The notes beneath the pieces are model-generated. The model did no database searches, had not been told where the DNA came from, and saw only the letters and a list, made by a program, of their open reading frames with translations. Position numbers and translations under genes: made by a program. From positions 1,226,464-1,290,463 of the forward strand of contig NZ_CP022463.1 in NCBI RefSeq assembly GCF_002224485.1: a stretch of 64,000 nucleotides of DNA, written 5' to 3'. Numbering within the stretch: position 1 is the stretch's first letter; the number at the start of each line of letters is the position of its first letter. This DNA comes from Sinomonas sp. R1AF57 (lineage in GTDB: Bacteria; Actinomycetota; Actinomycetes; Actinomycetales; Micrococcaceae). Of the stretch, positions 48,360 to 61,675 are shown piece by piece.

Positions 48360-48405
48360 GCGTGCGCACCGGGGCCCGCTCGTCCGCGACACGCCGCCGA
48401 ACGTT

Positions 48406-48419
48406 CGAAGATGTGTTCG
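48406..48419. promoter_or_regulatory. LexA (SOS) box upstream of recA
   Basis: CGAAGATGTGTTCG matches the Gram-positive SOS box CGAACRNRYGTTYG at all but one position. It lies 177 bases before the recA ATG; a TATTCT hexamer at 48428-48433 is a candidate -10 box close by. Confidence 0.75.
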
Positions 48420-48595
48420 GGGGAGGGGTATTCTCCTCCACAGGAGAGAATTCAGCCTTTCTGCCTGGGTTGTCCACATACGCCCGCGCGCTGCGTGAAG
48501 TGTCGGTGGGCCTCGGTAGCGTAGCGACTGGATCTAACGGCGCACCTCGTCACCAGGGGACGCCAGAGCCCGTACCAATCGACCGGAGGTGCACC

Positions 48596-49616
48596 ATGGC
48601 GGCAACGCCAGACCGCGAGAAGGCGCTCGAAGCGGCCCTCGCCCAGATCGACAAGCAGTTCGGCAAGGGATCGATCATGCGCTTGGGTGACGACACCCGT
48701 GCACCGATCGAGGTCATCCCCACCGGTTCGATCGCCCTGGATGTCGCTCTCGGCATCGGCGGCCTGCCGCGGGGCCGTGTCGTGGAGATCTACGGCCCGG
48801 AATCCTCGGGTAAGACGACGGTGGCCCTGCACGCCGTCGCGAATGCGCAGCGCAACGGCGGGATCGCGGCGTTCATCGACGCCGAGCACGCCCTCGACCC
48901 GGAGTACGCGGCCAAGCTCGGTGTCGACACCGACGCGCTCCTGGTGTCGCGAGATCATGGACATGCTCGTGGGCTCCGGCTCCCTCGACATCATCGTCAT
49001 CGACTCGGTGGCCGCGCTCGTCCCCCGCGCGGAGATCGAGGGTGAGATGGGCGACAGCCACGTGGGCCTCCAGGCCCGGCTCATGAGCCAGGCCCTCCGC
49101 AAGGTCACAGGCCGGCTCAACCAGACGAAGACGACGGCGATCTTCATCAACCAGCTCCGCGAGAAGATCGGCGTCTTCTTCGGCTCGCCTGAGACCACCA
49201 CCGGTGGCAAGGCGCTCAAGTTCTACGCCTCGGTGCGCATCGATGTCCGCCGTATCCAGACCCTCAAAGAGGGTGCCGATTCGGTCGGAAACCGGACCAA
49301 GGCGAAGATCGTCAAGAACAAGATGGCACCGCCCTTCAAGCAGGCCGAGTTCGACATCATCTACGGCCAGGGCATTTCCCGCGAGGGCGGCATCATCGAC
49401 ATGGGCGTGGAACACGGCATCATCAAGAAGTCTGGCTCGTGGTTCACCTACGACGGCGACCAGCTCGGCCAGGGCATGGAGAACTCCCGTCGCTTCCTCC
49501 GCGACAACCCTGAGCTCGCCGAGGAGCTCGAGCGCCTGATCAAGGAGAAGCTGGGCGTGGGCGTGAAGGCCGCCACAGAAGAGCAGCCGCGCCTGAAGGC
49601 CGTTGACGGCGAGTAG
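48596..49616 (+). pseudogene. recA: recA with a frame-shifting 26-nt deletion
   Basis: The reading frame from ATG 48596 (site GGAGGT) encodes a normal RecA N-terminus with Walker [10 protein letters not shown] up to VDTDALLVS at 48949. The expected next residues QPDTGEQAL are absent: the DNA passes from TCG (48947-48949) through one C straight to GAG ATC ATG (48951), where RecA resumes one frame over ([19 protein letters not shown]) and runs normally to the stop at 49616. A family RecA has 27 bases there, so 26 are missing. The original frame runs on to a stop at 49045. The lost segment includes the catalytic glutamate (E. coli Glu96). As written the gene cannot make a working RecA; a sequencing or assembly error is possible. 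Confidence 0.85.
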
Positions 49617-50142
49617 CCGCCCGGGTCCGCCTCCTGAGGAGGATCCGGAGGCGGACCCGGAGTCGGTGGCGCGCGCCATCCTCCTGCGGCAGCTCACCCT
49701 CGGTCCACGGACGCGGCTCCAGCTCGAGCGGAAGCTGCGCGAGCGCAATGTCCCCGAAGAGACCGCTGATGCAGTGCTCGCACGCTTCGAGGACGTGGGG
49801 CTCATCAACGATGCGGAGTTCGCCCGCATGTGGGTCCGCAGCCGCGGGGAGTCCAAATCGCTGGGCCGTGCGGCGCTGCGGCGGGAGCTCGGTGAGAAGG
49901 GGATCCTGGGGGAGGTCGCTGAGGATGCGCTCTCCGCGGTCAGCGACGAAGACGAGGCGGCGGCCGCGAGGCGCCTGCTCGAACGCCGGGTGCGCGCCGT
50001 GGACCGTTCCGATCCTGCGGCGCGTGACCGGGAACTGCGGCGCCTCGTCGGGATGCTCGCCCGCAAGGGGCACTCACCGGGAGCCGCGTTCCGGATTGCA
50101 GCCGAGGTCCTCGACGCCGGCGGCGGTGCACCGCCCCAGTGA
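49603..50142 (+). CDS. recX: regulatory protein RecX
   Basis: A 179-residue RecA modulator. The three-helix repeats are visible ([63 protein letters not shown]). TTG 49603 lies 14 bases inside the recA end, the usual overlap; GTG 49666 is a later alternative. It is intact even though recA is broken. Confidence 0.9.
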
Positions 50143-60635: not shown

Positions 60636-61343
60636 TCACACCGACCGCAGGACCGAGACGACCTTGCCCATGATGGTGGCGTGGTCGCCGAGGATGGGCT
60701 CGTAGCGGGTGTTCTGCGGCAGGAGCCAGGTGTGCCCGTCGCGCTGGCGGAAGGTCTTGACCGTCGCCTCGTCGTCGAGCAGCGCGGCCACGATGTCGCC
60801 GTTCTCCGCCGCGTTCTGCCGGCGCACGACCACCCAGTCCCCGTCGCAGATGGCGGCGTCGATCATGGAGTCGCCCTTGACCTTGAGCATGAACAGCTCG
60901 CCGTAGCCCACCAGCTGCCGGGGGAGCGGCATGACGTCCTCGACCGCCTGGTCCGCAAGGATGGGGCCACCAGCGGCGATGCGCCCGACCAGCGGAACGA
61001 GCGCGGTGTCGGCCGCGCTGGCCATGTCCCCGAGCGGGACCCCCGTCGCGCCGCGCAGGGCGGCGGCTTCCTCGGCCGGAACGCTCAGTTCGCCTTCGTC
61101 CAGCGTCAGCGGCATCAGGACCTCCATGGCGCGGGGGCGCTTGGGATCGCGGCGCAGGTAGCCGAGCTTCTCGAGCTGCATCAGCTGGTGCGTGACGCTT
61201 GAGAGGCTTGCGAGGCCCACCGTGTCCCCGATCTCGCGCATGGACGGCGGGTAGCCCTTGAGCTGCACGGAGCGCTGGATCGTCTCGAGGATCCTCTTCT
61301 GGCGCGCCGTCAGTCCTTTGGCTGCTCTGGTCCGTGATGCCAT
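60636..61343 (-). CDS. lexA: SOS repressor LexA
   Basis: A 235-residue repressor. The N-terminal winged helix has [25 protein letters not shown]; the C-terminal protease has the Ala124-Gly125 cleavage site (RIAAGGPIL), Ser159 in KGDSMIDA and Lys196 in ATVKTFRQ. All residues for RecA-stimulated self-cleavage are present, so induction would need a working RecA. ATG 61343 follows GAGAGGCAGGA. Its promoter contains a LexA box. Confidence 0.97.
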
Positions 61344-61497
61344 GCCGTCCTGCCTCTCCACCGGGGGCGCCACGCCTCCGGGATCCCGTCCGTCGATGCC
61401 CCGGGGCCTCCCTGCGAGAACTGTCGTACCCCCTCGGCAGGATGTCGTCATGGTCGACGGGGGCGGGCAGCTCGGCGTGGAACCCGGTGCTACCCCC

Positions 61498-61526
61498 ACC
61501 GTAGGCCAGTCGGACAGGCCTTTCAA
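61498..61526 (-). promoter_or_regulatory. lexA promoter
   Basis: On the minus strand TTGAAA (61526-61521) and TACGGT (61503-61498) are separated by exactly 17 bases. The LexA box overlaps the -35 element, as expected for autorepression. Confidence 0.75.
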
Positions 61527-61537
61527 ACATGTGTTCG
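61524..61537. promoter_or_regulatory. LexA box in the lexA promoter
   Basis: CAAACATGTGTTCG matches CGAACRNRYGTTYG at 13 of 14 positions. It also lies just upstream of the divergent LysM gene promoter (TGGACA at 61546, TAAGAA at 61570). Confidence 0.8.
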
Positions 61538-61588
61538 ACCGTGTCTGGACAGGCATCGTGGACAGGTGCTAAGAAAGAGTCATCACTT

Positions 61589-61602
61589 CGAACGTTTCTT
61601 CG
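61589..61602. promoter_or_regulatory. second LexA box, LysM gene side
   Basis: CGAACGTTTCTTCG matches the consensus at 12 of 14 positions and lies downstream of the likely LysM-gene start of transcription, where a bound repressor would block it. Confidence 0.6.
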
Positions 61603-61675
61603 AAACACTGCGCAGAGTGCCGCCGATGTGTTCGCACTCGACGTCGTTCGGCGACTGCGCAGGGGAAGGCGCATC

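What the first reader, a model, noticed from the sequence alone, without database searches (positions are those of the whole stretch)
48596..49616. recA disrupted by a 26-nt deletion that removes the catalytic glutamate segment
RecA runs normally to VDTDALLVS, then the frame is lost because only one base lies between TCG (48947-48949) and the GAG that resumes RecA in another frame (48951). RecA proteins have nine residues there (QPDTGEQAL), so 26 bases are missing. This region contains the catalytic glutamate (Glu96 in E. coli). The rest of recA, its SOS box and recX are undamaged, so the event is recent, or it is an assembly error. A true recA null would disable LexA cleavage and recombination in a free-living actinobacterium.
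Basis: partly seen in the sequence, partly recalled or inferred. Interest (0 to 1): 0.85.

Follow-up and report, generated by a model that had tools for sequence, protein, structure and literature searches.

The report
Broken recA, probably an assembly gap
In this soil bacterium's genome sequence the DNA-repair gene recA lacks 26 letters and cannot be read through; the loss looks so fresh, and sits where some other assemblies also fail, that a sequencing or assembly error is the likeliest cause, with a recent real mutation second.

Summary
In detail: recA (48596-49616) lacks 26 nt after codon 118 relative to all 8 same-genus relatives aligned, and no second recA was found. One detail is wrong: the lost residues QPDTGEQAL are E. 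coli RecA 118-126; catalytic Glu96 lies in FIDAEHAL and is intact at 48884-48886. Both halves still show strong purifying selection (dN/dS about 0.03), so the loss is very recent or not real. The '1-contig' genome is a scaffold: five 100-N gaps in the 1.2 Mb read, one ending at the base before the window. G405, same family, has a 37-nt recA deletion containing our 26 nt; G653, same order, is 63 nt short there with an N at the junction. Against an artefact: recA is the only clearly broken gene among 428 G002 query genes matched, the junction has no N, Ku for end joining is present, and my prediction of a break hotspot failed in the class survey (0 of 6 examined). Artefact about 0.60; genuine recent recA null about 0.33. 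Only reads or a PCR product can decide.

The parts
48405..48420 (+). SOS-box-like site upstream of recA
   Evidence: 2 mismatches to a recalled actinobacterial consensus; in the whole window 13 such matches against 3.3 expected by chance
48596..48949 (+). recA 5' part, 118 codons, with Walker A (48794-48817) and the Glu96 codon (48884-48886)
48947..48953 (+). junction: TCG, C, GAG; 26 nt present in 8 of 8 aligned relatives are absent; 1-nt microhomology
48951..49616 (+). recA 3' part in another frame, 221 codons and stop, with Walker B (48990-49004) and the RecA C-terminal domain
49603..50142 (+). recX, open reading frame
   Evidence: ORF; RecX_HTH1 and RecX_HTH2 over the Pfam cut-off, RecX_HTH3 under it
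60636..61556 (-). ORF holding lexA (LexA DNA-binding domain at 61128-61319), with SOS-box-like sites at 61523-61538 and 61588-61603

Best explanation
The 26-nt loss is most likely an artefact of a draft, scaffolded assembly of a high-GC genome, and the living strain probably carries an intact recA. Shown: the genome record is a gapped scaffold; the gene shows no sign of decay; two other assemblies lack DNA at this segment, one of them with an N at the junction. Inferred: the segment folds on itself, reads were thin or truncated there, and the ends were joined across the gap with a one-base overlap. Not shown: the reads, the sequencing method and the assembler, which are not available here.
For: Five 100-N gaps in 1.2 Mb, one directly before the window. 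No decay: dN 0.014 against dS 0.54 to G002, and the only window-specific residues are the junction codon and two in the variable tail. G405's 37-nt deletion contains our 26 nt (chance of containment about 0.016, of any overlap about 0.08). G653: 22 profile positions missing with a single N in the 3 nt between the pieces. G377's contig ends about 35 nt from the site. The segment ranks in the top 0-12% of recA for folding in 11 of 11 intact relatives tested (best of about 8 windows, so the rank is flattering). Known recA losses that I saw in papers are in host-restricted bacteria.
Against: The own junction has no N. Genes around it look clean: recA is the only frame-disrupted one among 158 and 139 tested, and the only one with both pieces at 85% identity or more among 428 G002 and 233 G013 queries matched. 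My written prediction that breaks gather at Pfam 100-137 failed in the class survey: 0 of 6; pooled 4 of 13, p about 0.11. G405 has no N in the loci held. Other stretches of recA fold more strongly in most relatives.
Confidence: 0.6

Rival explanations
1. A genuine, very recent recA null in the sequenced culture. A break or slip in the segment was sealed with loss of 26 nt, for example by Ku-dependent end joining. The cell makes a 149-residue fragment (118 RecA residues with Walker A, then 31 foreign) and no functional RecA, so it should be deficient in recombination and LexA cleavage. The deletion step is inferred; the frame loss is shown.
For: No N at the junction; little other gene damage; Ku present, 190 of 190 profile positions; 1-nt microhomology at the junction; no second recA or copy of the missing motif; a recent event fits the absence of decay.
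Against: recA loss was not seen as a decayed gene in any genome that I opened; the lesion must fall in about the last 3% of the branch (my arithmetic); the nested deletion in G405 and the N in G653 point to a site-specific assembly problem. LigD was not searched for.
Confidence: 0.33
2. The culture is mixed: some cells carry the deletion, and the assembler kept that version.
For: Compatible with a junction without N and an undecayed gene.
Against: No second allele in the deposited sequence; not testable without reads.
Confidence: 0.04
3. Translational recoding (frameshift or bypass) rescues RecA.
For: The two pieces abut and both are conserved.
Against: Nucleotides are missing, not added: even perfect recoding would give a RecA without most of residues 118-126, which are present in all 8 relatives aligned and in E. 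coli. No recoding signal was sought.
Confidence: 0.01

Closest known systems
Intact recA of the same genus (Sinomonas albida L033/G001; G002, 87.5% DNA identity)
   Same: Same gene, same neighbours (recX downstream in the window), strong constraint on both halves
   Different: They carry the 26 nt and one frame
   Same: Deletion contains our 26 nt, also shifts the frame, no N in the loci held
   Different: Other genus, other end points and length; reads not available, so artefact or mutation is equally open there
   Same: Loss over the same segment
   Different: The N marks it as an assembly gap; the frame is kept
Natural recA loss in host-restricted bacteria: Borrelia recurrentis (PMC2525819, passages seen); Calyptogena clam symbionts (PMC3202245, abstract seen)
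   Same: recA inactivated or lost in a sequenced genome
   Different: In-frame stop or large loss in reduced or decaying genomes; here a 3.9-Mb genome with an undecayed gene

Membership tests
RecA recombinase (PF00154) | Profile match over the whole family length in one frame | tested here: not met
   Two pieces, 1-112 and 119-262, in different frames
RecA recombinase (PF00154) | Catalytic Glu96, Walker A and Walker B present in the DNA | tested here: met
   48884-48886, 48794-48817 and 48990-49004, but on two different frames
Natural recA pseudogene | Further decay (stops, relaxed constraint) | tested here: not met
   dN/dS about 0.03 overall, no stop in the 3' part before its end; a very young pseudogene would look the same
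Natural recA pseudogene | Lesion present in the organism | not testable with these tools
   needs reads or resequencing
Assembly artefact | Draft-quality, gapped assembly | tested here: met
   five 100-N runs in 1.2 of 3.94 Mb
Assembly artefact | Breaks recur at the same segment in other assemblies | tested here: inconclusive
   4 of 7 non-insertion breaks at Pfam 100-137 in the family and order surveys (own included), 0 of 6 of those examined in the class survey; pooled p about 0.11
Assembly artefact | Other broken conserved genes in the same assembly | tested here: not met
   recA alone among 158 and 139 genes tested by frame; 12 and 8 stop flags left unresolved
Ku-dependent end joining | Ku gene and a junction with little microhomology | tested here: met
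   this permits the mechanism, it does not show it

The most novel reading that the evidence does not exclude
The 118-126 segment of recA is a genuine deletion hotspot in high-GC Micrococcaceae: breaks at one folded site, sealed by Ku-dependent end joining, repeatedly create short-lived natural recA nulls in free-living soil bacteria (this Sinomonas and G405 independently).
Probability: 0.12. Interest if true: 0.6.

Novelty: not a real feature. Interest (0 to 1): 0.22.

Why it matters
If real, it would be a free-living actinobacterium without RecA, hence without LexA cleavage and homologous recombination, testable by simple UV and mitomycin assays, and a natural background for Ku-dependent repair. 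If an artefact, it is a caution: the genome held for this species would be read as recA-minus, and two other genomes from the family and order surveys lack DNA at the same segment.

Tried and rejected
Second recA copy or relocated missing segment: not found. Intein scar at the site: the insertion-like splits that I opened fall at Pfam 63-69, 193-198 and perhaps 244, not at 112-119; that they are inteins is inferred from long open frames, I did not scan them for intein domains. Fixed-site nuclease (homing endonuclease): considered because two deletions share a centre; no element at this site was found in the loci opened. Slippage on direct repeats: only 1 nt is shared at the junction; the repeat GGTGTCG at 48920 and 48943 has spacing 23, not 26. 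General error load of the assembly: not seen by frame, but one search flagged 12 of 158 and 8 of 139 own genes for a stop inside the match, many near match ends, and I did not resolve them; one search flagged 14 G002 and 14 G013 queries by a loose rule (recA in both lists), the others with at least one piece under 85% identity, and 2 in-frame gaps of 8-9 residues. The own stretch 675001-1075000 had few counterparts, since the matching G002 stretch could not be fetched. Break hotspot prediction: not met in the class survey. N-gap flanks: no exact overlap of contig ends; 2 of 5 gaps had matches in the relatives' stretches. SOS-box pattern over the genome: 30 matches against 20 for the reversed control pattern, so weak. 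E. coli base rate: recA covers at least 80% in 5362 of 5426 genomes, 2 have a partial match and 62 none; I did not look into the 62. Paper searches: among the listings I saw no report of recA loss in Sinomonas or Arthrobacter. Odds: on re-checking, G793 (below) is less clear than I first held, so the artefact reading went from 0.62 to 0.60.

Full report
Observation. recA starts at 48596 and reads as RecA for 118 codons to TCG 48947-48949. One base (C 48950) separates this from GAG 48951, where RecA resumes in another frame to the stop at 49616. Aligned with 8 recA genes of the same genus, the window alone lacks 26 nt; the other 6 of 14 same-genus genomes give one unbroken RecA match each. Pfam PF00154 matches the own genome only as these two pieces, and an exact degenerate pattern for the missing peptide has 0 hits in it. 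As it stands the first ORF gives 149 residues, 31 of them foreign; the 3' part codes for 221. recX is open. An SOS-box-like site with 2 mismatches ends 176 nt before the start codon. lexA is in the window. The genus is Sinomonas by best match: S. albida, 97% over the 3' part.

Correction. Numbered on E. coli RecA (from NZ_CP051706.1), QPDTGEQAL is residues 118-126, while Glu96 is in FIDAEHAL. The window keeps that motif, with the Glu codon at 48884-48886. Glu96 as a hydrolytic residue is from PMC8548320 (passages seen). Walker A is in the 5' part and Walker B in the 3' part, so the frame loss would still destroy the protein.

Age. Against G002, the closest recA among the loci held (87.5% DNA identity), dS is 0.54 and dN 0.014. 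Of 339 codons compared, three window residues are unique: one is the junction codon itself and two are in the variable C-tail. If half of dS fell on the window's branch, about 207 amino-acid-changing substitutions would be expected over that branch without constraint. With 2 seen, the inactive period is at most about 3% of it (my arithmetic, Poisson upper limit). So the lesion is very recent or not real.

Assembly. G000 is listed as one contig, but the 1.2 Mb that I read holds five runs of exactly 100 N, one at 1226364-1226463, ending at the base before the window. It is a scaffold of draft contigs. By frame the genes look clean. Among G002 genes intact in G013, 158 could be tested in the own genome, and among G013 genes intact in G002, 139; recA was the only frame-disrupted one in both sets, with 12 and 8 further genes carrying an unresolved stop flag. 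The same test gave 7 of 157 and 6 of 142 frame disruptions in G002, and 4 of 152 and 4 of 157 in G013. With more sequence, 428 G002 and 233 G013 query genes were matched; 14 and 14 were flagged by a loose rule, and only recA had both pieces at 85% identity or more.

Other genomes. Three surveys of PF00154 covered 395 genomes of the family, 396 of the order (at least 95% complete) and 394 of the class; by my count of handles 1107 are distinct. In the family and order lists I found 11 rows besides G000 with a best E-value weaker than 1e-135, and opened all 11. Five of them (G420, G425, G545, G629, G484) look like insertions in a long open frame. The six breaks were: G405, 37-nt deletion containing our 26 nt, no N; G653, 63 nt short at the same segment with a single N at the junction; G377, contig end about 35 nt from the site; G312, a 100-N gap near Pfam 155; G064, contig ends near Pfam 32-48; G356, frame break near 44-51 in a 62% complete genome. 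With G000 that is 4 of 7 at Pfam 100-137, where 14.5% would be expected (p about 0.011, range chosen after seeing them).

Failed prediction. I then wrote the prediction down and surveyed the class. By my count 39 rows besides G000 had a best E-value weaker than 1e-135 and 5 had no match. I opened 14 of the 39. The 25 not opened are 21 with best E between about 1e-108 and 1e-104, like the insertion-bearing genes, and 4 with trace matches. Of the 14, six (G763, G860, G931, G1083, G768, G938) look like insertions; G778 and G868 end or begin next to the insertion sites and were left out; the six breaks counted lie near Pfam 50 (G889), 91 (G905), 93 (G878), 155 (G829), 160 (G776) and 81/190 (G793). 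That is 0 of 6 with an end in the predicted range, though the stretch lost in G793 spans it. Pooled, 4 of 13, p about 0.11. In G793 one contig joins Pfam 81 directly to 190, and another contig holds 61-214: a misassembly or a second copy, not resolved.

Why this segment. In 11 of 11 intact relatives folded as single strands in 60-nt windows, the best window at the site ranks in the top 0-12% of recA for stability. It is the best of about 8 windows, so the rank is flattering, and other stretches are stronger in most. Loss of coverage at high GC in Illumina data, and at palindromes and inverted repeats in clone-based Sanger data, is described in PMC4053816 (passages seen). The link from folding to this loss is inference.

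Judgement. Artefact is favoured by the gapped scaffold, the absence of decay, the nested deletion in G405 and the N in G653. A real mutation is favoured by the junction without N, the otherwise intact genes, and Ku with a 1-nt microhomology junction. Known recA losses that I saw in papers are in host-restricted bacteria: Borrelia recurrentis (PMC2525819, passages) and clam symbionts (PMC3202245, abstract). I put 0.60 on artefact, 0.33 on a genuine recent null, and the rest on mixed alleles, recoding or something else. Only reads or a PCR product can decide.

Noticed in passing
L185, L186 (G405:C2:448852-449600): A second Micrococcaceae genome with a frameshifting recA deletion (37 nt) that contains the 26 nt lost here.
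   Followed up: partly
L197 (G653:C9:228641-229363): recA 63 nt short at the same segment with a single N at the junction, in an assembly listed as 99% complete.
   Followed up: partly
L278, L270 (G793:C34:41324-41639 and C17:1-462): One contig joins RecA profile position 81 to 190; another contig holds 61-214. Misassembly or second copy.
   Followed up: no
L192-L195, L198-L201, L267, L271-L273 and others: recA genes of the order and class interrupted by about 1-kb in-frame insertions at profile positions 193-198 and 63-69 (perhaps 244 too), probably inteins; not scanned for intein domains.
   Followed up: partly
L079, 4189-4404 and 5701-6470: Allonocardiopsis opalescens recA is interrupted by about 1.3 kb near codon 73 (Walker A), probably an intein.
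   Followed up: no
G000:C1:1226364-1226463: A 100-N gap ends at the base before the window, so the window starts at a contig end.
   Followed up: yes
G805 (class survey): Listed as 100% complete with 7% contamination, yet no RecA match at all.
   Followed up: no
E. coli genomes: 62 of 5426 complete E. coli genomes show no recA match, and a DH5alpha record (NZ_CM135829.1) covers only 27% of recA.
   Followed up: no
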